A program made the translations under genes and the position numbers. From positions 1,612,001 through 1,676,000 of the forward strand of contig NZ_CP060388.1 in assembly GCF_014280435.1 (NCBI RefSeq): a stretch of 64,000 nt of DNA. Direction: 5' to 3'. Shown here piece after piece: positions 19,697 through 42,787 of this stretch. The DNA comes from Sphingobium sp. KCTC 72723. Lineage in GTDB: Bacteria > Pseudomonadota > Alphaproteobacteria > Sphingomonadales > Sphingomonadaceae. The notes beneath the pieces were generated by a model. The model saw nothing but the letters and a program-made list of their open reading frames with translations. It was not told the origin of the DNA and searched no databases. Each line of letters begins with the position of its first letter. The stretch's first letter is position 1.

Positions 19697-19802
19697 CAGC
19701 GCAAAACCCCTTATCATTCTCACCGGGTTATGACGATAGCAGCCCATCCCCCCTCTACGTCAAATGACGGATTGGTCGGGCGAGGTGGCCACCCCCTCTC
19801 AC

Positions 19803-19901: not shown

Positions 19902-22085
19902 CTAAGCCAGCATCTCCGCCGTCACCGGCAGGCTGCGCACTCGCTTGCCGGTCGCGGCATGGATCGCGTTGACCAGCGCGGGAATGACCGGCGGCAGCGC
20001 GGGCTCGCCAAGTCCCGTGGGCGGATAGTCGGTCTTTACGAATTCCACGATGATCGCGGGCGTCTCGGTTATCCGCTGCAACGGATGGGTATCGAAATTC
20101 CCCTGTTCCACTGCGCCTGCGACCTGGGTGATGATCTGCCCGGCCAATGCCTGGCCCAGCCCCTCAATCACCGAACCCTGCACCTGATGCAGCGCATTGA
20201 CGGGGTTGATGATCTGGCTGCCGACATCGCCTGCCACCCACACGGTCTTTACCGTCGGCACGCCATCGGCCACGACCACTTCCAGAACTTCGGCAAAATA
20301 GCCCATATGGCTATAATAAAAGGCAAAGCCCTTGCCATGCCCCTTGGGCAGCGCCTTGGCATTGGCCCAATCGGCCATCGCCAGCACCTTTTCGATCACG
20401 CCCTTGGCTCGTGCCGTCACGAACGGCGGCGCATTGGACCCGCGATTCAACTCCTTGGGATCGCTCAATAATTCTAGCATCAGCGTGGGCAGATCCTTGC
20501 CCGCTGCCTGCGCGACCTCGTCCAGAAACGCCTGCGTCACGAAACCCAAAGCGTTCGATCCGGGCGCGCGCAGCCAGCCGGTCGGCATGTTGGTGGAAAG
20601 GAAACTCTGTTCCAGCAGCACATGGTCGATCAGCCCGACCGGCAATTCGGTCGCGGGCAATTCGGCCGATCGCACCGGCTTGCCATCCTTGCCGAAAGTC
20701 ACGAAATGATCGTGAAACGCGCTCAGCCTGCCGCCCTTGTCGATCGCCGCGCGAAAGCCATGCCAGCCCGCCGGACGATAGAAATCGCGGTGAAAATCAT
20801 CCTCCCGGCTGAACAGCAATTTCACCGGCACGCCCGGCACCTGCCGCGCGATCGCGGCGGCCTGCACCATATAATCGTTCATCAGCCGCCGCCCGAAACC
20901 GCCGCCGATCCGGGTGAAGTTGATGCGGATCTTTTCCGGCGGCAGGCCCATCGCCTTGGCCACCAGCCCGCGTCCATTTTCCGGGTTCTGGGTCGGCGCC
21001 CAGATCTCGACCGCGCCATCCTTGAACAAGGCCGTGCAATTTTGCGGCTCCAGCGTGGCATGGGCGATGAAGGGGTAATGATAGTCCGCGCTGATCACCT
21101 TCCCCGCCGCCGCGAATGCCGCGTCCACATCGCCGGTCCGCGCAATGTCGCCGTCCGCCTTGCCCTTCGCCCGCGCCGCCGCCTGCGTCGCATAGCTATC
21201 GGTCGAAAAGCCCGACACCGCGCTCATATCCCACTCGACCTTGAGCGTTTCGCGCGCCTGTTTCGCGCTCCACCAGCTTTTCGACAGGATCGCCACCCCG
21301 TCATAGCCCGACTCCGCCGTGCCATCGCCCTTGATCGTCAGCACATGCGCCACCCCCGGCAAGGCGCGGACCGCATCCAGATTGGCCGACTTGAACGTCC
21401 CGCCAAAGGCCGGGCATGTCTCCAGCACCGCGTACAACATACCGGGCAGCTTGAAATCGATCCCGAACAGGGGCTTCCCCGCGACGATGGCGGGCGTATC
21501 CACCCCGCCGATCGACTGGCCGATGATGCGGAAATCCGCCGGATCTTTCAGTGTCAGCGTCACCACATCGGGCGCGGGCAGCTTCGCCGCCGCCCCGGCC
21601 AGCGCCGCATAAGTCACCGACCTGCCCGATTTGGGATCGCGCACCGTGCCGCTGACCGTCGTCAGCGTCTCCGCCGCCACGCCCCATTGCGCCGCTGCCG
21701 CCGCGACCAGCATCGCCCGCGCAGCCGCCCCTGCCCGCCGCGTCGGCAACCATTCGCGCGGCGTCGTGCGGCTGCCGCCTGCCGATTGCCCGCCGAATAT
21801 CGCGGCGTCGGCATGGGTCTGCTCGATGGTCACCTGCGTCCAGTCGACGTCCAGTTCCTCAGCGATCATCATTGGCAGCATCGTCTTTGCGCCCTGCCCG
21901 ACTTCGGCGTTTTTCGCGCCGATGATGACGCGGTTGTCGGGCAATATGCGGATGAACGCGGTCAATATCACCGGCGTCCCGTCCGCCGCCTGCGCCATTG
22001 GCACATGCAGGTCGAACAGCAATCCGCCGCCCGCCATCAGCGACGCGGAAATGAAGCCCCGGCGGGATAGTGCGACCCCGCTCAT
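19902..22085 (-). CDS. iorB: Molybdenum hydroxylase large subunit (IorB/aldehyde oxidase type), Tat-exported
   Basis: This 727-residue molybdopterin-binding subunit of the xanthine dehydrogenase family closely follows isoquinoline 1-oxidoreductase beta subunits. It starts with a twin-arginine signal ([15 protein letters not shown]) and so is moved folded to the periplasm. Cofactor-binding segments include [42 protein letters not shown] and the C-terminal [10 protein letters not shown] with the Glu expected for catalysis. The natural substrate is open: N-heterocycle or aldehyde. It overlaps the iron-sulfur subunit gene by four bases (ATGA). Confidence 0.85.
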
Positions 22086-23210: not shown

Positions 23211-23338
23211 TCCCCGATCGCTCGCCCCTTGCGCTAAAGGAACCGCCCGCCACGCTCGATAGGGCGTTTGACGTAGGGTTGCCCGCCGCCCCGCTGCTAT
23301 CGTCAATTCAGGGATCGTTCGCAGGATTCCCTATGTCG

Positions 23339-23414
23339 TCGCAGGTAAAGATAAACGGCCTTCCCATGGCACCTGCGAAAGGCCCGGATTCTCGACGCAG
23401 GATCCGGGCCTTTT
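23339..23414 (+). promoter_or_regulatory. Candidate attenuator or small RNA ending in an intrinsic terminator
   Basis: On the plus strand TCGCAGGT (23339-23346) pairs with ACCTGCGA (23371-23378). Directly after comes an 11-bp terminator stem, AAGGCCCGGAT (23379-23389) with ATCCGGGCCTT (23402-23412), followed by a short T run. The terminator loop contains a second CGCAGG (23396-23401) that could compete for CCTGCG of the first stem, so two exclusive folds are possible. It ends 91 bases before the start of the exported ureohydrolase gene. Confidence 0.5.
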
Positions 23415-23505
23415 GATGGCAGGCTACGTCAATCGCCCCATTTGCCACGCGGGTCCGCCTGGCCTAGCCTGCCACGCATGGGAACGGGCTTTCGGGGGAA
23501 CGGCA

Positions 23506-25017
23506 TTGAGCATCAAACGCATGGCGCTGGGCGCGCTGCTGGCCGCGACGGTCATATCCTCCGCCGCCGTGATCGCGCAGGGCGACAAGCCGACGATTCC
23601 CGCCGCGCTGGAAGCCAAGATCAAATCCCTGCCCAAGGCGAAGCGCGACTTTCTCACTTCCGACCCGGCCGAAATGTTCGCCGGTTCCTTCGACAAGCTG
23701 TTCGAACGGTTGGCGACCAAATCGCCGCAGGAAATCGACGCCTATATCGAAGCGATGATGGATGCGGTCGAAGCGTCCAAATATAACGCGAAAACAGACA
23801 TGGCGGCGATCCCGCTCGACACCGGGAACGAAAATTTCAACGGCTGGAAACTGCGCCGCCCCGACGGGCTGGACCCCAAGCGCGAACCCGGTCCCTTTTC
23901 GCTCAGCTATTACGCCCATGCCACCGCAGGCGGCGGCGTCTATGGCGGTGGCATCGCGACTTTCGCCGGTGCGCCCGTCGCGGTTTTCCCCGAAGATCTG
24001 GTCGCAGGCAAGGTGGATGTGGCCATCGTCGGCGCGCCGCTCGACATGGGGTCGGGCTATCGCGGGGCAAAGGGCGGCCCGTCGGCCATGCGCACCCAAT
24101 ATGGCGCGGGCGGCATCGACATGTATACGATGGTCGACCCGTCGAAGGAACTCAAGATCGTCGATTATGGCGACATCGCCGTCGACAATATGTCCACCGA
24201 ACGCACCGTCGCCCATGTGCGCGAACGGGTCGCCGAAATCGCCCGCACCGGGGCCATCCCCTTCATCGTCGGCGGCGACCACAGCCTGGAATATAGCGAC
24301 GTCGCCGGGATTGCCGATGTCCATGGCAAGGGCAGCTTTGGCGTCGTCCATTTCGATTCCCACTATGACGCGGGCAAGGGCGGCGTCCATTTCATCACCC
24401 ATGGCGCGCCGGTCTATCGCGCGGTGAAGGAAGGCCATGTGCTGGGGAAAAACTACATCCAGGTCGGCCTGCGCGGACCATGGCCGGAAAAGGAAGGCTT
24501 TGAATGGATGCGCGACAATGGCGTGCGCTATCATGCCATGCCGGAGATCGAGAAAAGCGGCTGGGCCGCAACGATGGAACGGGCGCTAAAGGAAGCGCGC
24601 GAAAGCGGCAAGAAACTCTATGTCTCCTTCGATGTCGACGTTCTGGACCCCGCCTTCATCCCTGGCACCGGCACCCCCGTTCCCGGCGGCCTGACCATGC
24701 GCGAAGCCATCCCCATCGTGCGCCGTCTATGCGCGGAAAATGAGCTGGTCGGCTTCGAAATCGTCGAACTCGCCCCCGTGCTGGACCCGACCTACCGCAG
24801 CGCATTGAACGCCAACTTCATCATGCACGCCTGCCTGACCGGCGTCGCCATGCGCAAGAAGGGGATCAAACAAGCGGGCTTCCTCTCCGACCTCACCACC
24901 GAACATGGCCAGCCCTTTTACGGCGAAAAGGCAGCGAAGGACGGCAAGGCGGAAAAGGTCGATCCCGGCTTTGCACGCGGCGGGAACAGTCGGGGCAGCG
25001 GCCGCCCGGCGACCTGA
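23506..25017 (+). CDS. Exported ureohydrolase (arginase/agmatinase family)
   Basis: This 503-residue metal-dependent hydrolase releases urea from a guanidino compound. A TTG start at 23506 is chosen because GGGGGA lies 8 bases upstream; it opens a signal peptide (MALGALLAATVISSAAVIAQ, then GDKP), placing the enzyme outside the cytoplasm. Manganese ligands are all visible: His in GGDHS, Asp/His/Asp in FDSHYDAG and two Asp in SFDVDVLDPAFIPGTGTP. An N-terminal helical extension of about 150 residues makes it longer than a typical agmatinase (about 310). Substrate could be agmatine, guanidinobutyrate or a related compound. It converges on arfB with a 3-base gap. Confidence 0.82.
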   Translation: MSIKRMALGALLAATVISSAAVIAQGDKPTIPAALEAKIKSLPKAKRDFLTSDPAEMFAGSFDKLFERLATKSPQEIDAYIEAMMDAVEASKYNAKTDMAAIPLDTGNENFNGWKLRRPDGLDPKREPGPFSLSYYAHATAGGGVYGGGIATFAGAPVAVFPEDLVAGKVDVAIVGAPLDMGSGYRGAKGGPSAMRTQYGAGGIDMYTMVDPSKELKIVDYGDIAVDNMSTERTVAHVRERVAEIARTGAIPFIVGGDHSLEYSDVAGIADVHGKGSFGVVHFDSHYDAGKGGVHFITHGAPVYRAVKEGHVLGKNYIQVGLRGPWPEKEGFEWMRDNGVRYHAMPEIEKSGWAATMERALKEARESGKKLYVSFDVDVLDPAFIPGTGTPVPGGLTMREAIPIVRRLCAENELVGFEIVELAPVLDPTYRSALNANFIMHACLTGVAMRKKGIKQAGFLSDLTTEHGQPFYGEKAAKDGKAEKVDPGFARGGNSRGSGRPAT

Positions 25018-27288: not shown

Positions 27289-28137
27289 TCAAATATCCTG
27301 TGCGATCCGCCCGTAAAGATCAGGCCGCCGGTCGCGGAAGAAGCCCATGCCCGCGCGGTGCGTCCGCGCCTGCGCCAGGTCGAGCGTGGCGACCAGCGCG
27401 CCATGGTCCCTGGCGTCCGCTTCGGCGGCGAAATCGCCCCATTGATCGGTGATGAAGCTGTGGCCGTAGAATAGCTGCCCGTCTTCATCGCCGATGCGGT
27501 TGGCGGCGATCACCGGCATACAATTGCTGACCGCATGGCCGATCATCGCGCGCCGCCACATCCGGCTGGTGTCGAGTTCCGCATCATAGGGTTCGGAACC
27601 GATGGCGGTGGGATAGAACAGCATTTCCGCCCCCATCAACGCCATGCAGCGCGCGGTTTCAGGATACCATTGGTCCCAGCAGATACCGACGCCAATGGTG
27701 CCATATTTCGTCGGCCACACCTTGAAACCCGTATTGCCGGGGCGGAAATAATATTTCTCCTCATATCCCGGCCCGTCGGGGATATGGCTCTTGCGATACA
27801 CGCCCATCACCTCGCCCTGATCGTCGATCATGGCCAGCGAGTTATAATGATGCTGCCCGTCCCGCTCGAAGAAACTGGTGGGGATATAGACGCCCAGATC
27901 CTTGGCCAGCTTGCGCATTTCCTGCACGGCGGGATGCACATCGACCGGCTGTGCCTGCGCGAACAGCGCCTCATCCTCCACGCGGCAGAAATATGGCCCC
28001 TCGAACAATTCGGGCGGCAGGATGATCTTGGCCCCGCGCATGGCGGCCTTGGTCACATGGGTTGCGACCTTGGCGATATTCTCGGCCATGTCGTCGGTAA
28101 AGCTCAGCTGCAATGCGGCAACGGTAACCTTGGTCAT
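27289..28137 (-). CDS. aguB: N-carbamoylputrescine amidase
   Basis: This 282-residue nitrilase-superfamily enzyme hydrolyses N-carbamoylputrescine to putrescine, CO2 and ammonia, the step after agmatine deiminase. The Glu-Lys-Cys triad is present: Glu43 in PPELFEG, Lys116 in YRKSHIPDGPGYEEKYYF and Cys153 in GICWDQWYPE. The motif PDGPGYEEKYYF is characteristic of AguB-type enzymes. aguA lies upstream on the same strand, with a DUF2501 gene and a 33-bp hairpin between. Confidence 0.93.
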   Translation of the reverse strand: MTKVTVAALQLSFTDDMAENIAKVATHVTKAAMRGAKIILPPELFEGPYFCRVEDEALFAQAQPVDVHPAVQEMRKLAKDLGVYIPTSFFERDGQHHYNSLAMIDDQGEVMGVYRKSHIPDGPGYEEKYYFRPGNTGFKVWPTKYGTIGVGICWDQWYPETARCMALMGAEMLFYPTAIGSEPYDAELDTSRMWRRAMIGHAVSNCMPVIAANRIGDEDGQLFYGHSFITDQWGDFAAEADARDHGALVATLDLAQARTHRAGMGFFRDRRPDLYGRIAQDI

Positions 28138-28787: not shown

Positions 28788-29786
28788 TTACAGCGAGGGC
28801 ATCTGCTGGCTGCAACAATGGAAACTGCCCCCGCCCGACAATATCGCGTCGCTGCGCAGCCCCACTATCTCCCGCCCCGGAAAGAAGGGCGCGAACGCAT
28901 CCAGCGCCGCCTGATCATTGGGCTGGCCATAGATCGGCACGATGACGGCAGCATTGCCGACATAGAAATTCATGTAGCTGGCCGGAATCGCTTCGCCGTC
29001 CACCATCACCAGACCGGGCGATGGAATGTCCGTCACCGCCACCCCCTGCGCCGTCGCCCGCGCCCGCGCATCGGCATAGATCGCCGCGTTGGGATCGTCC
29101 GGCGTCGTCGCGATCGGCAAAGCCAGCAGGCCCGGCGCGACGAACCGCGCCAGATTGTCGACATGCCCATCGGTATGATCGTTCAACAACCCGTCGCCCA
29201 GCCACAGCATGTCGGACAGGCCCAGGCTCCCGGCCAGCAACGTCTCTATCTTGCCCCGGTCCAGGTCCGGGTTGCGATTGGGGTTGAGCAGGCATTGTTC
29301 GGTCGTCACGAACAGGCCAGTGCCGTCCGTATCAATCGCGCCCCCTTCAAACACCCAGTTCTGCGTCGATACCAGCATCCCCGTGGTCGCGGCCAGCCGC
29401 GCGCCAATATCCTCGTCGCCCGGCATCTGATATTTACCGCCCCAGCCATTGAAGCCGAAATCGACCAGCGCCCGTCCATATTCTTTGGCGCCCGCACCGT
29501 TCAGCACCGCAATCGGCGCCGTGTCGCGCAACCATATGTCGCCAAGCCGCTGCACGATGATAGACACGCCCGGATCGACCAGCCCGCGCGCCACCTGCGC
29601 GTCCGCCTCCGTCGCAACGACCAGCCTGACCTCCTCGCCACGCCCGCCCGCATGGAGCGCACTGGCAAAGGCGGCGATCTGCGCCCGCGCATCGTCGAAC
29701 GCGCCGGGCCATTCGGCAGGGTTGGTCGGAAAGCCGATCCAAGTCCAGTCGTGCGGCGCCCATTCGGCAGGCATATGATATGTCAT
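28788..29786 (-). CDS. aguA: Agmatine deiminase
   Basis: This 332-residue guanidino-group modifying enzyme converts agmatine to N-carbamoylputrescine and ammonia. Visible motifs include WIGFPTN near the N-terminus, the RDTAPIAV and FNGWGGKY segments, the catalytic His in NDHTDGHVDNLARF, and the nucleophile Cys in the C-terminal GGGSFHCCSQQ. The start MTYHMPAEW has AAGGACG about 7 bases upstream; longer in-frame readings to 30140 have no homology. It is divergent from the DUF6265 gene. Confidence 0.94.
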   Translation of the reverse strand: MTYHMPAEWAPHDWTWIGFPTNPAEWPGAFDDARAQIAAFASALHAGGRGEEVRLVVATEADAQVARGLVDPGVSIIVQRLGDIWLRDTAPIAVLNGAGAKEYGRALVDFGFNGWGGKYQMPGDEDIGARLAATTGMLVSTQNWVFEGGAIDTDGTGLFVTTEQCLLNPNRNPDLDRGKIETLLAGSLGLSDMLWLGDGLLNDHTDGHVDNLARFVAPGLLALPIATTPDDPNAAIYADARARATAQGVAVTDIPSPGLVMVDGEAIPASYMNFYVGNAAVIVPIYGQPNDQAALDAFAPFFPGREIVGLRSDAILSGGGSFHCCSQQMPSL

Positions 29787-29898
29787 GATGTCGTCCTTGC
29801 TCGGCGGCGATGGTCGGCATCGGGGCCGATCCATGATAAGGCTTGGGTCGGCCCGCTCCATAGCGGCACGCGCCCGGTCTGGACAGGGGGAGAGTGGC

Positions 29899-30348
29899 AT
29901 GATGCGCAGGATTTTCACCAGCCTGGCGATGGCGCTGGCGGTTCCATTGACGGCGCAGGCCGGCGAACTGCCCGGCTGGATCGCGGGCGCATGGGTCGAA
30001 CGTAATGGCGACAGCTGGTCGGAGGAATATTGGTCCGGTCCACGCGGCGGCATCCTGCTCGGCGCGGCGCGCACGGGCAAAGGCAGCACGCTGGAATTTT
30101 GGGAACAGACCCGGATACAGATCGACCCGGACGGCAGCATCGCTTTCTATGCCTCGCCCAAGGGCGCACCCGCATCGCGTTTCCCCATGGTTTCGCAAAG
30201 CGCGACCGAAATCGTCTTTGCCAATGCCGCCCATGATTATCCCCAGCATATCCGCTACTGGCGCGACGGCAAATTCCTCCGCGCGGCAATAGCGAAGATC
30301 GACGGCAGCGCCGCGCGTGGCTGGACCTATGCGCCGATGGGGCAATAG
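29899..30348 (+). CDS. DUF6265 family exported protein
   Basis: This 149-residue protein has a signal peptide (MMRRIFTSLAMALAVPLTAQA, cleaved before GELPGW) and a single beta-rich domain with the family features WIAGAWVERNGDSWSEEYW, FWEQTRI and the end FANAAHDYPQHIRY. GGGGGAGAG precedes the start. The family is secreted and its function is unknown. It lies 75 bases before ureD and could in principle share its transcript. Confidence 0.78.
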   Translation: MMRRIFTSLAMALAVPLTAQAGELPGWIAGAWVERNGDSWSEEYWSGPRGGILLGAARTGKGSTLEFWEQTRIQIDPDGSIAFYASPKGAPASRFPMVSQSATEIVFANAAHDYPQHIRYWRDGKFLRAAIAKIDGSAARGWTYAPMGQ

Positions 30349-30423
30349 GGAAGGGATCGGGATAGCCCCGCTTCCGCCCCATACGTCATATACCCCATAT
30401 CCCGACCCGCATCGCAACCGCAC

Positions 30424-31281
30424 ATGTCGATCATGACCGCGCACGGCGCCATACCCCTCCCTCCCCGCTCCCGGCATCAGCGCGTCGATGGCCGCGCCAT
30501 GGTCGCCTTCGGCCCGCGCGGCATCCGCGACATGATGCAGGTCGCGCCTGCGCGCCTGCTGTTCCCCGACGGGCGCGAAGGCGACTTTCCCCTGTGCGTC
30601 ACGGTGACGACCAGCGGCGGGCTGACCGGGGGGGACCGGCTGGCGCTCGACATCATCGTCGATCCCGGCGTCGCCGCGACCATCGTGCCGCAGGCCGCCG
30701 AAAAACTCTATCGCGCGCTGGATGAGGACGAACCCACCCGCATCGACACCCGCATCGCCATCGGCGCGGGCGCGACCTGCGAATGGCTGGCGCAGGAAGC
30801 CATCCTGTTCGACCGCAGCAAAATGCGCCGCACGCTGGAGGCGGACATGGCCCCCGACGCGCGGATGCTGGCAATGGAAATGCTGGTGTTGGGGCGCAGC
30901 GCGATGGGCGAAACCTATCAGAGCGGCCTCATCCACGACAGTTGGCGCATCCGCCGGGGCGGGCGGCTGGTCTGGGCCGATGCGCTGCATGTCGAAGGCG
31001 ACTTTGCGACGCAGGGCCGCGCCCCCTTCGGCTTCGGCGATGCGAGCGCCATCGCCACCCTCGTCTATGCCGGGCCGGACGCTGCCGACTATCTCGACCT
31101 TGCCCGCACGCTGGTAGACGCGCCCACCGGCGGCGCGACCAGCTTCGATGGCCTCCTCATCCTGCGCCTGACTCGCAACGACGCGCAGGCGCTGCGCAAG
31201 GATGTGATGCGCGCGGCGGGCGTTTTGCGTGCCGCGATATTCGGACTGTCGCCCTCCATGCCTACAATCTGCTACTGCTGA
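30424..31281 (+). CDS. ureD: Urease accessory protein UreD
   Basis: This 285-residue chaperone binds urease apoprotein and forms the UreDFG complex for nickel delivery. Family segments are [36 protein letters not shown] and the motif [13 protein letters not shown]. The C-terminal end ([12 protein letters not shown]) is short but in keeping with sphingomonad members, so I see no frameshift. ureA starts four bases after its stop. It is the first gene of the ureDABCEFG operon. Confidence 0.92.
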
Positions 31282-31285
31282 TTCC

Positions 31286-31588
31286 ATGAACCTGACGGGA
31301 CGCGAAAAAGACAAATTGCTGGTGGCGATGGCCGCCATGGTCGCGCGGCAAAGGCTGGCGCGCGGGGTCAAACTCAACCATCCCGAAGCGATCGCGCTGA
31401 TCACCGACCATGTCGTCGAAGGCGCGCGCGACGGCCAGTCGGTCGCCACCCTGATGGCCAGCGGCGGCCACGTCCTGACCCGCGATCAGGTGATGGACGG
31501 CATCGCCGACATGATCCACGACATTCAGGTCGAAGCCACCTTCCCCGACGGCACCAAACTCGTCACCGTGCATCGGCCGATCCGGTGA
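31286..31588 (+). CDS. ureA: Urease gamma subunit
   Basis: This 100-residue structural subunit has the whole family sequence: [42 protein letters not shown] and the C-terminal [19 protein letters not shown]. It assembles with UreB and UreC in the cytoplasmic urease that hydrolyses urea to ammonia and CO2. The start follows the ureD stop by four bases. Confidence 0.96.
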
Positions 31589-31697: not shown

Positions 31698-32003
31698 ATG
31701 ATCCCCGGCGAAATCATCCCCGCCCCCGGCGACATCATCCTGAACGCAGGGCGTGCGCCCATCACGCTCACTATCGCCAACAGCGGCGACCGCCCGATTC
31801 AGGTCGGCAGCCATTATCATTTCGCCGAAACCAACCCCGCTTTGATCTTCGACCGAAAAGCCGCGCGCGGCCATCGCCTCGACATCCCGTCCGGCACCGC
31901 CGTCCGCTTCGAACCGGGCCAGACGCGCGACGTGCAACTCATCCCCTATGCCGGGGACCGTATCGTCATCGGCTTTCGCGGCGATGTGATGGGAACGCTA
32001 TGA
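31698..32003 (+). CDS. ureB: Urease beta subunit
   Basis: This 101-residue subunit begins [19 protein letters not shown] and contains [16 protein letters not shown] and [17 protein letters not shown], all typical of UreB. The length matches the family. It is separated from ureA by 109 bases that hold an inverted repeat; its stop is one base before the ureC start, so translation of ureB and ureC is likely coupled. Confidence 0.96.
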
Positions 32004-32004
32004 C

Positions 32005-33717
<1,713 letters not shown>

Positions 33718-33746
33718 TGGGTGCCGCGCCAACCCGATACAGCAAC

Positions 33747-33812
33747 GTGCTCCCGCGCAGGCGGGAGCCCAGCTCAACCGTCCCGACTGGGCTCCCGCCT
33801 GCGCGGGAGCAC
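33747..33812. repeat. Perfect inverted repeat in the ureC-ureE gap
   Basis: Arms 33747-33772 and 33787-33812 are perfect reverse complements over 26 bases around a 14-base loop. The arm core GCTCCCGCGCAGGCGGGAGC is itself a hairpin. It is the same family as 31612-31677. It lies in a 121-base gap inside the urease operon. Confidence 0.85.
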
Positions 33813-33838
33813 TTTATAGTCAATTTCGGAGCATCTCC

Positions 33839-34345
33839 ATGCTGACCGCCCACACCGTCCTCCCCCACGGCCACTGGTCCGGCCCCGCCGCCGACCATAT
33901 CATGCTGGATCATGACGCGCGCCACCGCCGCCGCTGGGTCTATACCGCCGATCATGGCACGCTGTTCCTGCTCGATCTGGCGCGCGCCACGGTGCTGAAC
34001 CATGGCGACGCGGTGCAACTGTCCGACGGTCGCCTCATTGAAATCCTCGCCGCGCCCGAAGCGCTGGTCGAAGTGACCGCCACGGACCCATCCGCGATGA
34101 TCCGCCTCGCCTGGCATATCGGCAACCGGCATCTGCCCGCCGAACTGCACCCCCACGCCATCCGCCTGCGCGACGATCATGTCATCAACGCCATGCTGTT
34201 GGGGCTGGGCGCGACCGTCACCAAAATCCACGCCCCGTTCACGCCCGAAGGCGGTGCCTATTCCGGCGGCGGCCACGATCATGGCCATCATCATCACGGC
34301 CACGACCATAACCACGATCACCACCATCACGACCATGCTGGCTGA
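33839..34345 (+). CDS. ureE: Urease accessory protein UreE (nickel metallochaperone)
   Basis: This 168-residue metallochaperone has an N-terminal UreE domain (to about residue 65) and a C-terminal metal-binding domain with the conserved WHIGNRHLPAEL. It ends in a His-rich tail (about residues 141-168, GHDHGHHHHGHDHNHDHHHH), which stores nickel in several species. Start MLTAHTVLPHG; a longer in-frame reading begins within the preceding repeat. Its 3' end overlaps ureF by 11 bases. Confidence 0.93.
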   Translation: MLTAHTVLPHGHWSGPAADHIMLDHDARHRRRWVYTADHGTLFLLDLARATVLNHGDAVQLSDGRLIEILAAPEALVEVTATDPSAMIRLAWHIGNRHLPAELHPHAIRLRDDHVINAMLLGLGATVTKIHAPFTPEGGAYSGGGHDHGHHHHGHDHNHDHHHHDHAG

Positions 34346-35015
34346 CGCCGCGCTCCACCGCCTGCTGGCCTGGACCTCCCCTTCCTATCCGGTGGGCAGC
34401 TTCACCTACAGCCACGGCCTGGAAACAGCGGTCGAGGATGGCCGCATCACTACGGCCGCCCATGTCACTGCCTATGTCGAAGCCGTGCTGGCGCGCGGTG
34501 GCGGCTGGATCGACGCTGTGCTGTTCGTCCACGCCCACCGCGCCGCGCAGGACGATGCCGCCTTCGACGCCCTCTCCGAACTCGCCGCCGCCTTCCGGGG
34601 CAGCAGCGAAACCGCGCTCGAAAGTCGGCAGCAGGGCGGCTCCTTCCTCTCGGTCACGCGCAAAGCCTGGCCCCACCCCGCGCTGGACGCTTTCGCCGCG
34701 CGCAATGGCGATCACCCGATCGCCCACGCCACCGTCATGGCGCTCGCCTGCGCCGTCCACGCCATCCCGCTCGAACCCGCGCTGCACGGCTGGCTTCACG
34801 CCACTGCCGCCAATCTCGTCTCGGCGGGCGTGCGGCTTGTGCCACTGGGCCAGACCGATGGCCAGTTGGCGCTGGCCGCGCTATCCCACGCCATTCCCGC
34901 CATTGCCGCAAAAGCGCTCGCCACCCCGCTCGACGACCTCGGCACCGCCGCCCCGGACCTCGAACTTGCCAGCCTGTCCCACGAAACACTCTATACAAGG
35001 TTGTTCCGCTCATGA
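34335..35015 (+). CDS. ureF: Urease accessory protein UreF
   Basis: This 226-residue all-helical partner of UreD and UreG gates GTPase activity during nickel insertion. The family start [21 protein letters not shown] is present, as are [11 protein letters not shown] and the C-terminal [13 protein letters not shown]. The start lies inside the His-tail codons of ureE (11-base overlap) and the stop overlaps the ureG start (ATGA). Confidence 0.93.
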
Positions 35016-35656
35016 ATCCGGTTCTTTCTGGCAACAACGGTCCCCTTCGCGTCGGCATCGGCGGCCCGGTCGGCTCCGGCAAGACCGCGCTGACCGACCG
35101 CCTGTGCAAGGCGATGCGCGACCATTATAACATCGCCGCCATCACCAACGACATCTACACCCGCGAAGATGCCGAATTTCTCACCCGCTCCGGCGCGCTG
35201 GTGCCTGAACGGATCATGGGCGTGGAAACCGGCGGCTGCCCGCACACCGCGATCCGTGAGGATGCCAGCATCAACCTGGCCGCCGTGGATACGATGAGCC
35301 GCAAATTCCCCGGCCTCGAACTCATCTTCATCGAAAGCGGCGGCGACAATCTGGCCGCCACCTTCTCGCCCGAACTGGCCGACATCACCATCTACGTCAT
35401 CGACGTATCGGCGGGCGACAAGATCCCGCGCAAAGGCGGCCCCGGCATCACCCGCTCCGACCTGCTCCTCATCAACAAGATCGATCTCGCCCCCTTCGTC
35501 GGCGCGGACCTCAATGTCATGGACCGGGACGCAAAGAAGATGCGCGGGCAGCGCCCCTTCCTCTTCACCAACCTGAAAGACAATATCGGGCTACCCGCCG
35601 TCATCGACTTCATCGTTGCGACCGGCGGCCTGCGCCCCTTCCCCGCCGCGATCTGA
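35012..35656 (+). CDS. ureG: Urease accessory GTPase UreG
   Basis: This 214-residue SIMIBI GTPase powers nickel delivery to UreC. The P-loop is GPVGSGKT (residues 18-25); the metal-binding switch motif is [15 protein letters not shown] (CPH), and guanine recognition is in [10 protein letters not shown]. Unlike some homologues it has no N-terminal His stretch. Its TGA stop overlaps by one base the ATG of the permease-kinase gene. Confidence 0.96.
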
Positions 35657-38600
35657 TGGACCGCGCCGCCTATGTCCTGCGCGAAAAGCGGCTCTACAAT
35701 AAGTGGGTCGCCAGCCAGACATTGGAGGATTATGCCCTGCGCTACACTGCCGACAGCGCCCGGCGCTGGTCGGCGGGGCAGGTCGCCAATACCGCGATCG
35801 GCGCGACCGCCTTCCTCGCCTGCGAAGCGATCGGCGCGTCGATCACCCTGACCTACGGCTTTGCCAACAGCGTCGCGGCCATCGCCGCCGCCGTCGCCCT
35901 GATGTTCGTCATCGGGCTGCCCATCGCCTATCACGCCGCCAAACATGGGCTGGACATCGACCTGCTCACTCGTGGCGCAGGGTTCGGCTATCTTGGCTCC
36001 ACCCTCACTTCGCTCATCTACGCCAGCTTCACCTTCCTGCTCTTTTCGGTCGAAGCGACCATCATGGCCGTCGCGCTCACCGCGATGACCGGGATGCCCA
36101 TGAGCATCGCCTATCTGGTCAGCGCGCTGGTCGTCATCCCCATCGCCCTGTACGGCATGAGCGCCATCACCCGGTTTCAGAATGCGACGCAAGGGCTATG
36201 GATCGCGCTGCAAATCGCCCCCATCGCCTATATACTCTGGTCCGGTCCGGCCGCCCTTTCCCAATGGTCGCGCTTCACTGGCCAGCTTGGCGCACCCGAC
36301 GGCAGCGTCAGCCTGCTCTATTTCGGCTTCGCCCTCTCCACGCTCCTCTCCCTTTTGCCGCAAATCGGCGAGCAGGCGGATTATCTCCGCTTCCTGCCCA
36401 GCGCGCAAAAGATCGGTAAAGGCAAATGGTGGGCCGCCATGCTCGCTGGCGGCCCCGGCTGGACGCTCATCGGGGGGCTAAAGCTGCTGCTTGGCTCCTG
36501 GCTCGCCCATTATCTGATCGGCAGCGCCGCATCGGCCAGCGATGCCGCCAGCCCGACCGTCATGTTCCAGACCATCTTTACCGCCATGTCGGGCCATGCC
36601 GGGCTGTCGCTGGTGCTGACTGGCCTGTTCGTCATCATCTGCCAGCTCAAGATTAACGTCACCAACGCCTATGCAGGCTCCATCGCCTGGTCCAATTTCT
36701 TCGCCCGCCTGACCCACAGCCACCCCGGCCGCGTCGTGTGGCTGCTGTTCAACGTCCTCCTCGCGCTGCTGCTGATGGAAGTCGGCATTTTCGACGCGAT
36801 CGAAGCGATCCTGATCCTCTACGCCACGGTGGCTGCGGGCTGGATCGGCGCGCTCGCGGCCGACCTCATGATCTCCAAGCCGCTGCGCCTCTCGCCCGCC
36901 GGAATCGAATTCAAACGCGCCCATCTCTACGACATAAACCCCGTCGGCATCGGCGCGATGCTCCTGTCCATCCTGATGTCGGGCAGCGCGCATCTGGGCC
37001 TGCTTGGGCAACTGGCGCAGGCATTCGCCCCGGTGATCGGCATGGCGGTCGCGTTCACCGCCGCGCCGGTGATCGCGCTCATCACCCATGGCCGCTACTA
37101 TATCGCCCGCCGCTCCCACTGGGCCGACGGCGCGGAAACCAAGACCTGCATCATCTGCGAAAACGCCTTTCAGCCTGTCGATATGGCGCATTGCCCGATG
37201 TATGCCGCGCCGATCTGCTCGCTCTGCTGCACGCTGGAGGCGCGCTGCCACGACCGCTGCAAATCCGACAGCCGCGCCACGCAACAAGCGGCGCGCTGGC
37301 TCGAACGCCTCCTGCCCGGCGGCATAGCGCGCCACGTCCATACGCCCGTGGGCCATTTCATTGCGGTCATGACGCTCATCACGCTCGCCAATGCCGGGAT
37401 CATGAGCGGCGTCGCCTGGCAATTCGCCCGCCGCGCACCTGCCGCCGCGACTCAGATCAACAGCCTGATGCTCGGCCTGTTCCTCCTCTTCTCGCTCATC
37501 GGCGGCGTGATCGCCTGGATGATCGTGCTGGCGCATCAAAGCCGCCGCACCGCGATGCAGGAAAGCGAACATCATGTGCAAAAGCTGATGGAGGAGGTGA
37601 TCGCCCACGACATCACCGGCGCGGAACTGCAAAAGGCAAAGGAAGCCGCCGAATCCGCCAACGCCGCCAAAAGCCGCTATCTGGTCAGCGTCAGCCACGA
37701 AATCCGCTCGCCGCTCAACTCCATATACGGCTATGCGCAACTGATGGAGCGCGGCCACGACATCGCGCCCGTGGAAGCCGCCAAGATCATTCGCCGCAGC
37801 GCCGAACATCTGACCAATCTGGTCGAAGGACTGCTGGACATATCGCAGGTCGAAAGCGGCGTGTTGCGCATCAGCAGCGAAACCGTGCGCCTTGCCCCTT
37901 TCGTCGATCAGATCGCCAACATGTTCCGCCCGCAGGCGCAGGCAAAGGGCATCGACTTTCTGTTCGAACGCCCCGACCAACTGCCCGATTTCGTCCGCAC
38001 CGACCAGAAACGCCTGCGCCAGATCCTCATCAACCTGCTGTCCAACGCGATCAAGTTCACCCGCTCCGGCGCAGTCACCTTTCGCGTCGCCTATCGCAGC
38101 CAGATGGCGACGTTCGACATCATCGACACCGGCCTTGGCATCGCCCCCGATGACCTGAAGCGCGTGTTCGACCCCTTCGAACGCGGCAGCAACCCCGACG
38201 CGCAACGGCAAAAGGGCATCGGCCTTGGCCTGTCGATCACCCAGGCGCTGGTCCAGATATTGGGCGGCGACCTGTCCGTCGTCAGCGAAGCGGGGCGCGG
38301 AACCCAATTCACCGTCCGCCTGATGCTCGGCCATGTCGCCAACCCGGTGGAGGATGCGCCGCCGGTGGACCGGATATCCGGCTATGTCGGCGACCGCCGC
38401 AAAGTGCTGCTGATCGACGATGATCCCGCCCAGGTCGCGGTGCTGCGCGGCCTGCTCGAACCGCTCGACTTCACCGTGATGGAGGCATTGAGCGGGCGTG
38501 CGGGGCTGGAAATAGCCGCGCACGAAGCGCCCGACATCGTCCTGCTCGACATTTCCATGCCCGGCGAATCCGGCTGGGACATCAGCCGGGCATTGCGCGA

Positions 38601-39015
38601 AACATTGGGCGGCGCGGTGCGCATCATCATGGTGTCGGCCAATGCGCATGAATATCATCGCGGCGGCGACGGGCAGGCGGCACATGACATGTTCCTGATG
38701 AAGCCGGTCGATCTCGACGCGCTGCTGGACGCGATCGCCGATCAGCTTCATATCCGCTGGACCGGCGACGCGCCGCTGCCACCCGTCCCTGCGCCGGACG
38801 ACCTGACCCTGCCCGACCTGCCGGAGGACGCGCTGCCGATTCTGGCCGACATCGAACATAAAGCCATCATCGGTCATGTGCGCGGCATCGAATCGAGCAT
38901 CCGCGCGCTGGAGGAAGCCGTGCCGCACGCCCGGCCGCTCGCCGCCCGGATGCTCGCCCATCTCGACCGTTTCGACCTCAAGGGGCTGATAAAAATCATA
39001 AGGGCCGTAAAATGA
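35656..39015 (+). CDS. NCS1-type permease / hybrid histidine kinase fusion
   Basis: This 1119-residue protein joins a transporter and a sensor kinase. Residues 1-490 form about twelve membrane helices of the NCS1 (purine/cytosine/allantoin/hydantoin) symporter type, beginning RRWSAGQVANTAIG. A Cys-rich module follows (from Cys498: CIICEN, then CSLCC and CHDRC), then two more helices (about 570-640), the HisKA domain with phospho-acceptor His681 in SVSHEIRSPLNS, and the ATPase domain (NLLSNAIKF, DTGLGIAP, GIGLGLSI). A receiver with Asp965 in VLLDISMPG and a C-terminal helical domain complete it. The ATG overlaps the ureG stop by one base, so it belongs to the urease operon. The ligand is probably urea, a ureide or a related nitrogen compound. 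Confidence 0.85.
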   Translation: MDRAAYVLREKRLYNKWVASQTLEDYALRYTADSARRWSAGQVANTAIGATAFLACEAIGASITLTYGFANSVAAIAAAVALMFVIGLPIAYHAAKHGLDIDLLTRGAGFGYLGSTLTSLIYASFTFLLFSVEATIMAVALTAMTGMPMSIAYLVSALVVIPIALYGMSAITRFQNATQGLWIALQIAPIAYILWSGPAALSQWSRFTGQLGAPDGSVSLLYFGFALSTLLSLLPQIGEQADYLRFLPSAQKIGKGKWWAAMLAGGPGWTLIGGLKLLLGSWLAHYLIGSAASASDAASPTVMFQTIFTAMSGHAGLSLVLTGLFVIICQLKINVTNAYAGSIAWSNFFARLTHSHPGRVVWLLFNVLLALLLMEVGIFDAIEAILILYATVAAGWIGALAADLMISKPLRLSPAGIEFKRAHLYDINPVGIGAMLLSILMSGSAHLGLLGQLAQAFAPVIGMAVAFTAAPVIALITHGRYYIARRSHWADGAETKTCIICENAFQPVDMAHCPMYAAPICSLCCTLEARCHDRCKSDSRATQQAARWLERLLPGGIARHVHTPVGHFIAVMTLITLANAGIMSGVAWQFARRAPAAATQINSLMLGLFLLFSLIGGVIAWMIVLAHQSRRTAMQESEHHVQKLMEEVIAHDITGAELQKAKEAAESANAAKSRYLVSVSHEIRSPLNSIYGYAQLMERGHDIAPVEAAKIIRRSAEHLTNLVEGLLDISQVESGVLRISSETVRLAPFVDQIANMFRPQAQAKGIDFLFERPDQLPDFVRTDQKRLRQILINLLSNAIKFTRSGAVTFRVAYRSQMATFDIIDTGLGIAPDDLKRVFDPFERGSNPDAQRQKGIGLGLSITQALVQILGGDLSVVSEAGRGTQFTVRLMLGHVANPVEDAPPVDRISGYVGDRRKVLLIDDDPAQVAVLRGLLEPLDFTVMEALSGRAGLEIAAHEAPDIVLLDISMPGESGWDISRALRETLGGAVRIIMVSANAHEYHRGGDGQAAHDMFLMKPVDLDALLDAIADQLHIRWTGDAPLPPVPAPDDLTLPDLPEDALPILADIEHKAIIGHVRGIESSIRALEEAVPHARPLAARMLAHLDRFDLKGLIKIIRAVK

Positions 39016-39935
39016 CCACCCCTACCCCTCACAGCGATACCGTTCTCGTCGTGGACGACACGCCCGAATCGCTGCGCTTTCTGACCGACACGCTGGAGGC
39101 GGCGAACATCTCCGTCCTCATCGCTACCAGCGGCGAAGCCGCGCTCGAACTGCTCGCCCATGTGACTCCCGACCTCATCCTCATGGATGCGGTCATGCCC
39201 GGCCTCGACGGCTTCGAAACCACCCGCGCTATCAAACAGACGCCACGCGGCGCCCCGGTGCCGATCATCTTCATGACCGGCCTGACCGAAAGCGAACATG
39301 TCGTCCATGCGCTGGAGGCTGGCGGCGTCGATTATGTGCGCAAACCCATCGTGGTCGAGGAACTGCTCGCCCGCGTCCGCGTCCATATGGCCAATGCGCG
39401 CCAGACGCAGGGCGGCCATTATGCGCTGGACGCCACTGGCCGCAACCTGATCGCCGTTGGTGCGGATGGCGTGCTGTCCTGGCGCACGCCGGGCGCGGAC
39501 CGGTTGATGGAAGCGCTTGAACCCGGCTGGTCACGCACCGACGCCACACTCCCCACCATGTTGCGCGCACCCGTCGCCCGCCTCCTGCCGCAGGATCTGC
39601 CCGCCGGCACCACGATCAAGACCGAAAGCCCCGGCGGCGACACCGTCGAACTCATCATCGTCGGCCGCCCCCGCCGCGACGAAACCCTCGTCCGCCTCAA
39701 CCATCTCGACCCGCAAGCCGACATCGCCCGCTTGCAAAGCCATTTCGGCCTGACCCAGCGCGAAGCCGAAGTGCTGCTCTGGATCAGCTACGGCAAGCCC
39801 AACCGCGTCATCAGCGAAATCCTGGTCATCAGCCCGCGCACCGTGAACAAGCATCTGGAACAGATTTTCGAAAAACTGGGCGTGGAAACACGGGCAGCGG
39901 CGGCAGCCTTCGCTGTAAGAGTGATCGCGCATTAA
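39012..39935 (+). CDS. LuxR-family response regulator
   Basis: This 307-residue regulator has an N-terminal receiver (VLVVDDTPESL, phospho-acceptor Asp59 in DLILMDAVMPG, Lys in VDYVRKPI) and a C-terminal LuxR/GerE helix-turn-helix (LTQREAEVLLWISYGKPNRV, then ISPRTVNKHLEQIFEKLGV). A central segment of about 100 residues links them. It overlaps the kinase gene by four bases, so it is the kinase's cognate regulator, and probably acts on the urease or nearby nitrogen genes. Confidence 0.92.
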   Translation: MTTPTPHSDTVLVVDDTPESLRFLTDTLEAANISVLIATSGEAALELLAHVTPDLILMDAVMPGLDGFETTRAIKQTPRGAPVPIIFMTGLTESEHVVHALEAGGVDYVRKPIVVEELLARVRVHMANARQTQGGHYALDATGRNLIAVGADGVLSWRTPGADRLMEALEPGWSRTDATLPTMLRAPVARLLPQDLPAGTTIKTESPGGDTVELIIVGRPRRDETLVRLNHLDPQADIARLQSHFGLTQREAEVLLWISYGKPNRVISEILVISPRTVNKHLEQIFEKLGVETRAAAAAFAVRVIAH

Positions 39936-39966: not shown

Positions 39967-40458
39967 CTACGGCGGCGACGGCGGCTGCACGCAAAAACTG
40001 ACGATCAACTCGCTCATCGTCGCGATCGTCGTCGGCAATGCTTCGATGATCGCGCGCCGCCCATCCTGTTCATGGCCGCGCCGCCTGACCAGTCCACTGG
40101 TTTCCAGCCTGTTCAAATGCCGCAACGCCGTCGTCATTGGCGCTCCGCTGGCATAGCATAGTGACGTCACGCTCGAAGGCCGTGCTTCGCTCGTATCAGC
40201 GATCAGCGCGAGCAGCATGTTCCAGCCGGGATCGGCAACTGGCTGCCCTATCACTTCGCCGCGCCGCAGGGATGATCGGTGAAATTGTTTGGCAATCGCG
40301 CCGACATCGGCAATCGCGACGGGAATATCTGCCTGTTGCTCGAAATCGGGATCGACCTGCGCATTGGCCCGGATGAGTTCGATCAGAGCATCAAGCACGA
40401 CAGGCCCAATTCCCAATTTCACCATATGATGCCTGATTTCGCGCAGCCGGTTTGGCAT
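39967..40458 (-). CDS. MarR-like winged-helix transcriptional regulator
   Basis: This 163-residue protein has a helical N-terminal part and a C-terminal winged helix (about 85-150) with SSVTSLCYASGAPMTTALRHL as recognition region and the wing RRRGHEQDGRRAIIEAL. AGAGGGA lies about 6 bases before the ATG at 40458; an in-frame TTG farther upstream is not needed. It is convergent with the LuxR regulator and probably autoregulated through the palindrome just upstream. Its targets are not known. Confidence 0.78.
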   Translation of the reverse strand: MPNRLREIRHHMVKLGIGPVVLDALIELIRANAQVDPDFEQQADIPVAIADVGAIAKQFHRSSLRRGEVIGQPVADPGWNMLLALIADTSEARPSSVTSLCYASGAPMTTALRHLNRLETSGLVRRRGHEQDGRRAIIEALPTTIATMSELIVSFCVQPPSPP

Positions 40459-40479
40459 CGCATTCCCTCTTTCCCATAT

Positions 40480-40498
40480 AGACAGGCGCAACCTGTCT
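40480..40498. promoter_or_regulatory. Palindromic operator candidate before the MarR-like gene
   Basis: AGACAGG (40480-40486) and CCTGTCT (40492-40498) form a perfect 7-bp inverted repeat with a 5-base spacer, 21 bases upstream of the MarR-like start. The following 90 bases (to about 40590) are AT-rich for this genome and include the palindrome TGAAATTTCA (40537-40546), so the promoter region probably lies here. Nothing else is visible up to 40658. Confidence 0.4.
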
Positions 40499-41657: not shown

Positions 41658-41743
41658 GCCGTCATCCCCGCCCCGTTCACCCACGCCCGCCATACGCCAT
41701 TTGCCCTATTGCACCGCCCTTCTCGCCGCCCAGACTGCCGCCC

Positions 41744-42787
41744 ATGGCCAACGACCCTCTCGATCTCGACGCCCTGCGCCGCCTCTATGCCGGCACCGGC
41801 GGCGCGGACATTCACGATCCCCATTTCCGCGACGTCGCCGGGCTGCAATTCAAAAATGGTGACAAGCGCCGCTGGCCCTTCGCCCAGCCCTCCACTTTGC
41901 TCGACGCCCCCTATATCGCGGGCGGCCTGACGCGCGAAACGCTCGATGCGCTGGACGTCGCGCTCATCGGCGTGCCGATGGACCTTGGCGTCACCAACCG
42001 CCCCGGCGCGCGTTACGGCCCGCGCGCCGTCCGCGCGGTCGACCGCATCGGTCCCTACGAACATGCGCTGCGCATTGCGCCCATGAACCACCTCAACGTC
42101 GCCGATGTCGGCGACGTGCCGATGCAGAGCCGCTATGACCTGTCGCTGTGCCACGCCGACATAGAGGAATGTTACGCCATGATCGGCGCGACAAAGGCCA
42201 TCCCCCTCTCGGTCGGGGGCGATCACAGCATCACCGGATCGATCATGAAGGGGCTGGCCGCCGCACGCGGGCCGATGGGCATGGTCCATTTCGATGCGCA
42301 TTGCGACACCGGCGGCATCTATGAAGGCTCCAAATTCCACCATGGCGCGCCCTTCCGCGAAGCCGTGCTGGCAGGCGTGCTGGACCCCAGACGCTGCATC
42401 CAGATCGGCATCAGGGGCGGGGCGGAATATCTGTGGGAATTTTCCTACGCCAGCGGCATGACCGTCATCCATGCCGAAGAATGCGCGCGCGTCGGCATGG
42501 ACGCCGTGGTCGCAAAAGCCCGCGAAACCGTCGGCACCGGACCCACCTATGTCACTTTCGACATAGACGGCCTCGACCCCGTATACGCTCCCGGCACCGG
42601 CACCCCGGAAGTCGGCGGACTTTCGACGCGCGAAGCGCTGACCCTGCTGCGCGGTCTAGCGGGCATCGACATCATCGGCGGCGACGTGGTGGAGGTCGCA
42701 CCCGAATATGACCCCACGACCCTGACTGCGCAGGCCGCCGCGCAAATGCTGTTCCAGTTGCTCTGCCTCGTCCAACTCCGCGCATGA
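41744..42787 (+). CDS. Cytoplasmic ureohydrolase (agmatinase/guanidinobutyrase type)
   Basis: This 347-residue manganese enzyme hydrolyses a guanidino compound to urea and an amine or amino acid. Metal ligands are present: His in SVGGDHSITG, Asp/His/Asp in FDAHCDTGG and two Asp in FDIDGLDPVYAPGTGTPEVGG. No signal peptide is seen, so it is cytoplasmic, unlike the other ureohydrolase at 23506. Whether the substrate is agmatine, 4-guanidinobutyrate, 3-guanidinopropionate or guanidine cannot be read from the sequence; the coupled permease and the neighbouring DpkA-like gene favour a guanidino acid. Its stop overlaps the permease start (ATGA). Confidence 0.85.
   Translation: MANDPLDLDALRRLYAGTGGADIHDPHFRDVAGLQFKNGDKRRWPFAQPSTLLDAPYIAGGLTRETLDALDVALIGVPMDLGVTNRPGARYGPRAVRAVDRIGPYEHALRIAPMNHLNVADVGDVPMQSRYDLSLCHADIEECYAMIGATKAIPLSVGGDHSITGSIMKGLAAARGPMGMVHFDAHCDTGGIYEGSKFHHGAPFREAVLAGVLDPRRCIQIGIRGGAEYLWEFSYASGMTVIHAEECARVGMDAVVAKARETVGTGPTYVTFDIDGLDPVYAPGTGTPEVGGLSTREALTLLRGLAGIDIIGGDVVEVAPEYDPTTLTAQAAAQMLFQLLCLVQLRA

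What the first reader, a model, noticed from the sequence alone, without database searches (positions are those of the whole stretch)
35656..39015. Permease fused to a hybrid histidine kinase at the end of a urease operon
One 1119-residue protein contains a complete NCS1-like permease, a Cys-rich module, a histidine kinase and a receiver. It is coupled by a one-base overlap to ureG and by a four-base overlap to its LuxR regulator. It looks like a transporter that reports flux or binding directly to gene control for nitrogen, with the urease genes as likely output. Permease-kinase fusions are known in a few families, but this pairing with urease and the Cys-rich linker seems poorly described.
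Basis: partly seen in the sequence, partly recalled or inferred. Interest (0 to 1): 0.75.

Follow-up and report, generated by a model that had tools for sequence, protein, structure and literature searches.

The report
Urea-operon transporter fused to sensor kinase
A bacterial protein that joins a nutrient-transporter fold to a signalling kinase sits next to urea- and amide-use genes in most of the copies examined, and probably senses urea and switches those genes on through a recognisable DNA site.

The parts
35656..39015 (+). NCS1-permease / Cys8 module / 2 long helices / HisKA / HATPase / REC fusion (transceptor-like hybrid histidine kinase), 1119 aa
35656..37125 (+). permease domain, residues 1-490, LeuT/NCS1 fold
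36649..36651 (+). codon of Lys332, at the position of CodB Thr278 (Na2 site); Lys in 121 of 121 family rows
37147..37260 (+). eight-cysteine module, residues 498-535; weak treble-clef-like model
37345..37572 (+). two long helices 564-593 and 595-639 (taken as TM13/TM14 into the signalling helix; membrane placement inferred)
37669..37860 (+). HisKA, residues 672-735
37999..38328 (+). HATPase_c, residues 782-891
38404..38736 (+). receiver domain, residues 917-1027
39012..39935 (+). cognate response regulator (REC + LuxR-type HTH), 4-base overlap with the kinase
30382..30398 (+). candidate operator TACGTCATATACCCCAT, centred 35 bp before the ureD start
30424..31281 (+). ureD
31229..31588 (+). ureA (gamma); domain from residue 20 on, so the ORF start is probably over-extended
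31698..32003 (+). ureB
32005..33717 (+). ureC
33692..34345 (+). ureE
34179..35015 (+). ureF
35012..35656 (+). ureG
23259..23275 (-). further operator-like site (3 mismatches to the ureD form; 1 to TACGTCANNYGCCCCA)
23425..23441 (+). operator-like site; first 16 bases match TACGTCANNYGCCCCA exactly; before a ureohydrolase gene
23413..25017 (+). arginase-family ureohydrolase, signal-peptide-like N terminus by eye (likely real start near 23507); putative regulon member
41693..41709 (+). weaker operator-like site (2 mismatches to TACGTCANNYGCCCCA) just upstream of the agmatinase ATG
41744..42787 (+). agmatinase-type ureohydrolase (TIGR01230 186.7 bits, cut-off 174.3); putative regulon member

Best explanation
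The protein is the sensor of a two-component system for urea (and probably short-chain amides). An NCS1-derived membrane domain binds the ligand from outside. The conformational change passes through the Cys8 module and the last two long helices to the kinase, which phosphorylates the LuxR-type regulator encoded next to it, with its own receiver as relay or brake. The regulator binds an inverted repeat TACGTCA-N2-TGACGTA (before ureD here the variant TACGTCATATACCCCAT) and turns on the urease operon and, in this genome, probably an unlinked urtABCDE operon and ureohydrolase genes; in most relatives it turns on the neighbouring urtABCDE-fmdA. Shown by sequence: domains, fold, neighbourhood, conserved pocket, operator position and co-occurrence. 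Inferred: ligand, direction of control, phosphotransfer path, regulator-operator binding, and that the domain works mainly as a receptor rather than as a Na+ symporter.
For: Neighbourhood: 56 of 56 examined copies of the phylum sample (57 copies in 52 of 398 genomes; one, in G264, not fetched) have urt, fmd or urease genes in the stretch examined (8.3 kb upstream to 11.7 kb downstream of the match start where the contig allows; 12 kb each way for the window): 36 a UrtA >=60% identical to the marker (35 with FmdA), 12 urease, 6 canonical urtA only, 2 FmdA only; regulator 2.5-4.5 kb on in 54 of 56. Marker proteins are above NCBIfam cut-offs for UrtA, UrtB, UrtC, UrtD and FmdA; NCBI's annotation of a Klebsiella plasmid copy independently reads urtEDCBA plus formamidase. 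Of 80 named loci 69 have such markers. Operator: best palindrome match of the locus in the urtA/kinase intergenic region (median 234 bp) in 80 of 92 loci with ties, 48 without; spacing 1 or 3 gives 2 and 0 without ties; 60 permuted halves average 1.4, the highest 34 (a near variant, TACGCAT) and 11. In 398 genomes the exact palindrome occurs in 9, 7 of them with the fusion; in 6 of these 7 it lies about 110-280 bp before the kinase match. Same genus: exact variant in 7 of 7 fusion-positive and 0 of 18 fusion-negative genomes. G021 keeps ureDABCEFG but has no fusion or regulator hit and no good site. Two places not used to find the motif carry it: a Klebsiella plasmid copy (TACGTCATTTAACGTA between urtA and the kinase) and the window genome's own unlinked urtABCDE, with a one-mismatch palindrome about 90 bp before the urtA ORF. 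Pocket: E57, T126, E133, Q236, E239, Q240, K332, N334, N337 in 121 of 121 rows from both contexts, as expected of one common ligand. Kinase/regulator junction overlaps or is within 10 bp in 123 of 130 (start codon nearest the kinase stop taken).
Against: No ligand, transport, phosphorylation or DNA-binding data exist. Of 80 named loci 11 lack urt, fmd and urease markers; 5 are fragments under 6 kb, but 6 are longer (L110, L111 Azospirillum, L111 with only 0.2 kb upstream; L148; L167; L181; L185). The stretches round the Azospirillum lipoferum and Sinorhizobium meliloti plasmid copies also lack them. One of the 56 (L088) rests on a 37% UrtA hit alone, its ureC being 16 kb off. The motif was recognised on the same urt-type loci that were then scored, so only the permuted controls and the out-of-sample sites are independent. 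Of 45 loci of the urease/other kind only 7 hold a palindrome with 0-1 mismatch, and several (L067, L085, L092, L097, L099) hold no good one. The genus-level operator result is confounded: the ureohydrolase genes occur in the same 7 genomes, and counts are not corrected for relatedness. In the own genome, sites with up to 2 mismatches are no commoner than the reversed control (62 against 67). No HPt domain, which a full phosphorelay would need, was found in the C terminus.
Confidence: 0.76

Rival explanations
1. It is a working H+- or Na+-coupled urea/amide transporter whose kinase merely reports flux.
For: Permease fold aligned over its whole length with CodB; no urt hits beside the window's or the six same-genus operons; CbrA, the best-studied analogue, transports histidine although it lost the Na+ ligands (passages of PMC7096432).
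Against: Na2 threonines replaced by Lys332 (121 of 121) and Ile333 (120 of 121); most relatives have a Urt importer next door, and the window's genome has urtABCDE elsewhere, which leaves transport redundant.
Confidence: 0.25
2. It senses a different, internal or nitrogen-status signal (ammonium, redox or metal through the Cys8 module) and the permease domain is a structural anchor.
For: Eight cysteines in 62 of 62 fusions and the module seen only in this family, one fragment aside, in 398 genomes; CrbS/MxtR phosphorylation was reported inhibited by ubiquinone (passage of PMC7918813).
Against: The membrane pocket is as conserved as the cysteines, unexpected for an anchor.
Confidence: 0.15
3. 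The palindrome belongs to another regulator (for example FmdB or a global nitrogen regulator), and the kinase controls something else.
For: The operator is defined only by position and co-occurrence; it also stands before ureohydrolase, TonB-receptor and unlinked urt genes. Other DNA-binding proteins near these loci were not surveyed.
Against: In 6 of 7 genomes with fusion and exact palindrome it lies directly before the kinase; the urease operon of G021, without the kinase, lacks it.
Confidence: 0.12

Closest known systems
SLC5/STAC sensor kinases CbrA, CrbS (MxtR), RpuS
   Same: LeuT-fold transporter domain fused to a histidine kinase, often hybrid; CrbS and RpuS work with LuxR-type regulators, CrbR with an inverted-repeat site; Na+ ligands lost in CbrA (passages seen: PMC7096432, PMC9100948, PMC5715377, PMC13022988, PMC7918813)
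NCS1 transporters CodB and Mhp1
   Same: Fold and detectable sequence kinship
   Different: Na2 threonines and base-stacking aromatics are absent; fused to a kinase
fmd and urt operons (Methylophilus fmdCABDEF; urtABCDE)
   Same: Same kind of neighbouring genes; [quoted passage not shown]
   Different: No kinase is named in that passage; PMC13296017 (passages) lists a hybrid kinase and LuxR regulator beside one urtABCDE operon and, in those passages, no permease
JGI annotation 'purine-cytosine permease-like' signal transduction kinase
   Same: Some members already carry this name
   Different: No function, ligand, operator or family description found in the paper searches made

Membership tests
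NCS1 (CodB/Mhp1) transporters | sequence kinship by profile | tested here: met
   hhalign 98.0%, E 1.8e-13 over 366 columns; CodB NCBIfam model weakly in 15 of 26 rows, below cut-off. Pfam PF02133 matched 1 of 26 rows, the standalone relative L100, so none of the 25 fusion rows
NCS1 (CodB/Mhp1) transporters | LeuT fold nearest to CodB/Mhp1 | tested here: met
NCS1 (CodB/Mhp1) transporters | Na2 site with Thr/Ser pair on TM8 (CodB Thr278/Thr279) | tested here: not met
   Lys332 in 121 of 121, Ile333 in 120 of 121; CodB residues from passages of PMC9379551
NCS1 (CodB/Mhp1) transporters | aromatic pair stacking the base (CodB Trp108/Phe204) | tested here: not met
   position 129 Phe 97 / Leu 24; position 233 Leu 119 / Met 2 of 121
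NCS1 (CodB/Mhp1) transporters | transport activity | not testable with these tools
   needs uptake assay
SLC5/STAC histidine kinases | SLC5 (SSS) transporter domain | tested here: not met
   NCS1 structures rank well above SSS ones; no SSF Pfam hit at E<=10
SLC5/STAC histidine kinases | STAC linker | tested here: inconclusive
   no Pfam domain over cut-off in 491-675; an eight-Cys module lies there instead; whether Pfam holds a STAC model was not checked
Hybrid histidine kinases | intact H-box, ATPase and receiver | tested here: met
   HisKA, HATPase_c, Response_reg above cut-offs; SHEIR H-box and LLDISMP receiver motif
Treble-clef/cross-brace zinc fingers (FYVE, RING, PHD) | fold of the Cys8 module | tested here: inconclusive

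The most novel reading that the evidence does not exclude
A widespread, so far unnamed class of transceptor two-component systems in which an NCS1 permease was turned into a Na+-independent urea/amide receptor by placing an invariant lysine at the Na2 site, linked to a kinase by a new eight-cysteine module, and acting through a TACGTCA palindrome on urt/fmd, urease and, in Sphingobium-like bacteria, a regulon that includes apparently exported urea-producing ureohydrolases.
Probability: 0.55. Interest if true: 0.8.

Novelty: new variant of a known kind. Interest (0 to 1): 0.7.

Why it matters
How urt and fmd genes are switched on by their substrates is, in the papers these searches reached, not explained by this system; this gives a specific sensor, regulator, operator and pocket to test. 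It extends the transceptor idea beyond SLC5 kinases to a second transporter family, with a parallel loss of the sodium site, so that the question of how a transporter becomes a receptor can be tested by comparison. The family is large (8000 homologues of residues 1-640 scored before the cap) and also found on plasmids (525 PLSDB records, 342 named Klebsiella).

Tried and rejected
Rejected: (1) Nucleobase, hydantoin or allantoin ligand: stacking aromatics lost; the recurrent neighbours named were urt, fmd and ure genes, though not every neighbour was annotated. (2) Standard Na+/substrate symporter: Na2 threonines lost. (3) The fusion as a local oddity or assembly error: many independent full-length copies. 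(4) HPt at the C terminus: no Pfam hit at E<=10 in 1029-1119. (5) Cys8 module as a domain shared with other proteins: in 398 genomes every match at E<=0.001 coincides with a fusion copy except one fragment in G164 (compared by eye).

Led nowhere: PDB sequence searches with the permease alone or as a profile and with the standalone relative L100; greedy ORF calling kept false antisense ORFs and was replaced by marker tblastn; paper searches for an NCS1-kinase or urea-sensing kinase gave no description of this system. In the Cys-module fold search no family stood out; families not listed there are not excluded. Rows dropped before the tree and pocket counts: 21 of 80 named loci (5 with open frames under 1000 aa, the rest Bradyrhizobium beyond three) and the standalone L100; 121 rows stayed. 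Two pairs of loci are duplicates (L103/L107, in the tree rows; L050/L129, both among the 92 operator loci).

They showed that the own genome does hold urtABCDE, against my draft's rival argument, with the operator before urtA; for that reason I moved the main confidence from 0.74 to 0.76 and the transporter rival from 0.30 to 0.25.
Full report

The fusion is common. A search of the first 640 residues scored 8000 homologues before the cap; only the best 120 were seen. In a sample of 398 Pseudomonadota genomes 52 carry it, with 57 copies. Urease alpha (PF00449 over cut-off) is present in 49 of these 52 and in 109 of the other 346 (Fisher 8e-19, not corrected for relatedness). I fetched up to 20 kb round 55 copies and used 24 kb of the window, and searched these with markers verified afterwards. 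All 56 have urea or amide genes nearby: 36 a UrtA at least 60% identical to the marker, 35 of these with FmdA; 12 urease; 6 a canonical urtA without urease in the stretch; 2 FmdA only. In 80 further named loci, two of them duplicates of loci above, the labels were 56 Fmd/urt, 8 with urease (one of them also Fmd), 5 canonical urt only and 11 none; 5 of the 11 are fragments under 6 kb, 6 are longer. NCBI's own annotation of a Klebsiella plasmid copy shows formamidase-urtEDCBA divergent from the kinase, which is labelled only 'ATP-binding protein'. The Azospirillum lipoferum and Sinorhizobium meliloti plasmid copies have the regulator but no urea marker within about 8 kb. The regulator follows directly: 123 of 130 junctions overlap or are within 10 bp, taking the start codon nearest the kinase stop.

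The tree of residues 1-640 or so (121 rows) follows context: 10 changes of label against a shuffled mean of 39.5, none of 200 shuffles as low. Four genomes hold both a urease-linked and an fmd-linked paralogue (G198, G265, G286, G417).

The pocket was mapped on CodB; the L187 homologue aligns to 7qoa over 1-407 without gaps, and the TM3, TM6 and TM8 correspondences are from a joint alignment. CodB binds Na+ with Thr278 and Thr279 (and backbone atoms) and stacks cytosine between Trp108 and Phe204 (passages of PMC9379551). In the fusion family these are Lys (121 of 121), Ile (120 of 121), Phe or Leu (97 and 24) and Leu (119 of 121). Invariant polar residues fill the region (E57, T126, E133, Q236, E239, Q240, N334, N337). 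Some positions differ with context: 129 is Phe in 76 of 76 fmd-type rows and Leu in 21, Phe in 15 of 36 urease/urt-type rows; positions 52, 231, 235 and 329, aligned with CodB residues that use main-chain atoms, shift as well. So one shared ligand with tuned affinity or selectivity fits, but is not proved. CbrA, an SLC5 kinase, likewise lost the PutP sodium ligands and takes up histidine without Na+ (passages of PMC7096432). I infer a Na+-independent receptor, possibly with residual transport.

A candidate operator emerged from aligning the ureD upstream regions of the window and six relatives: TACGTCATATACCCCAT in the window, close to it in five relatives, diverged in L104; it is centred 35 bp before ureD. 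In fmd-type loci it is a clean palindrome, TACGTCA-N2-TGACGTA; the best match in the locus falls in the urtA/kinase intergenic region in 80 of 92 loci with ties, 48 without. Changing the spacing gives 2 and 0 without ties; 60 permuted halves average 1.4, the two highest 34 (a near variant) and 11. The motif was recognised on these loci, so this is not an independent test. Across 398 genomes the exact palindrome occurs in 9: 7 of 52 with the fusion and 2 of 346 without (Fisher 1.3e-5); in 6 of the 7 it lies about 110-280 bp before the kinase match. In the Klebsiella plasmid, not used to find it, a one-mismatch copy lies between urtA and the kinase. Against this, only 7 of 45 urease-type or other loci have a 0-1 mismatch palindrome, and the A. 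lipoferum copy has none.

In the window's genome the variant TACGTCANNYGCCCCA has three exact sites: one before the ureohydrolase at 23413-25017 and a pair between a ureohydrolase and a TonB receptor at C1:1768.9 kb. One-mismatch sites stand before ureD and again before the first ureohydrolase, and a two-mismatch site before the agmatinase at 41744. Three other one-mismatch sites were not examined, and up to two mismatches the total equals the reversed control (62 against 67). A late search found urtABCDE in this genome about 0.1 Mb from the kinase (C1:1749.7-1754.4 kb); a palindrome with one mismatch, the only one up to three mismatches in that 11 kb, lies about 90 bp before the urtA ORF. Among 25 same-genus genomes the exact variant is in 7 of 7 with the fusion (23 sites) and 0 of 18 without, the reversed control in none. 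The ureohydrolases follow the same split, which confounds this. Urease is in those 7 and in G021; G021 has ureDABCEFG but no kinase or regulator hit, and no site better than 3 mismatches in 19.9 kb, that one being 5 kb from ureD: one natural experiment.

The Cys module has all eight cysteines in 62 of 62 fusions and was found nowhere else in 398 genomes apart from one fragment. A model of it alone (pLDDT 80-91 over the first 40 residues) resembles treble-clef zinc fingers only weakly, so metal sites are a guess.

Verdict: a new variant of a known kind, the transporter-fused sensor kinase, with a strong genomic case for urea/amide gene control and an untested ligand and mechanism.

Noticed in passing
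window 23413-25017; L225 4474-8621: Own genome has five arginase-family ureohydrolases; four have long N-termini that begin like signal peptides by eye, so urea may be made outside the cytoplasm. No signal-peptide predictor was run.
   Followed up: partly
L225 9123-11564: TonB-dependent receptor divergent from a ureohydrolase, sharing two exact operator-like sites: perhaps uptake of a guanidino compound.
   Followed up: partly
L278 3683-8396 (own genome C1, - strand), site 8487-8502: Unlinked urtABCDE operon with a one-mismatch palindrome about 90 bp before the urtA ORF; a likely regulon member.
   Followed up: partly
window 27289-28137 and 28788-30140 (-): N-carbamoylputrescine amidase (aguB, above cut-off) and an agmatine-deiminase-like gene (below cut-off) divergent from the urease operon.
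   Followed up: partly
window 19902-22085 (-), site 19756-19771: Molybdopterin-binding dehydrogenase-like gene near a one-mismatch palindrome TACGTCAAATGACGGA.
   Followed up: no
L094, L096 (G131, G237): Shorter fusions (open frames 894 and 899 aa) without an adjacent LuxR regulator hit, with an FmdA homologue nearby; they form their own branch.
   Followed up: no
L100 8301-9647 (G233): Standalone NCS1 permease, a non-fused relative, with Arg at the Lys332 position and a UrtA-like (29%) hit 3.3 kb on.
   Followed up: partly
plasmids collection: 525 plasmid records carry the permease part, 342 of them Klebsiella, 306 of all predicted conjugative.
   Followed up: partly
window 39967-40491 (-): 174-aa protein with weak MarR/ArsR-like helix-turn-helix hits below cut-off.
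   Followed up: no
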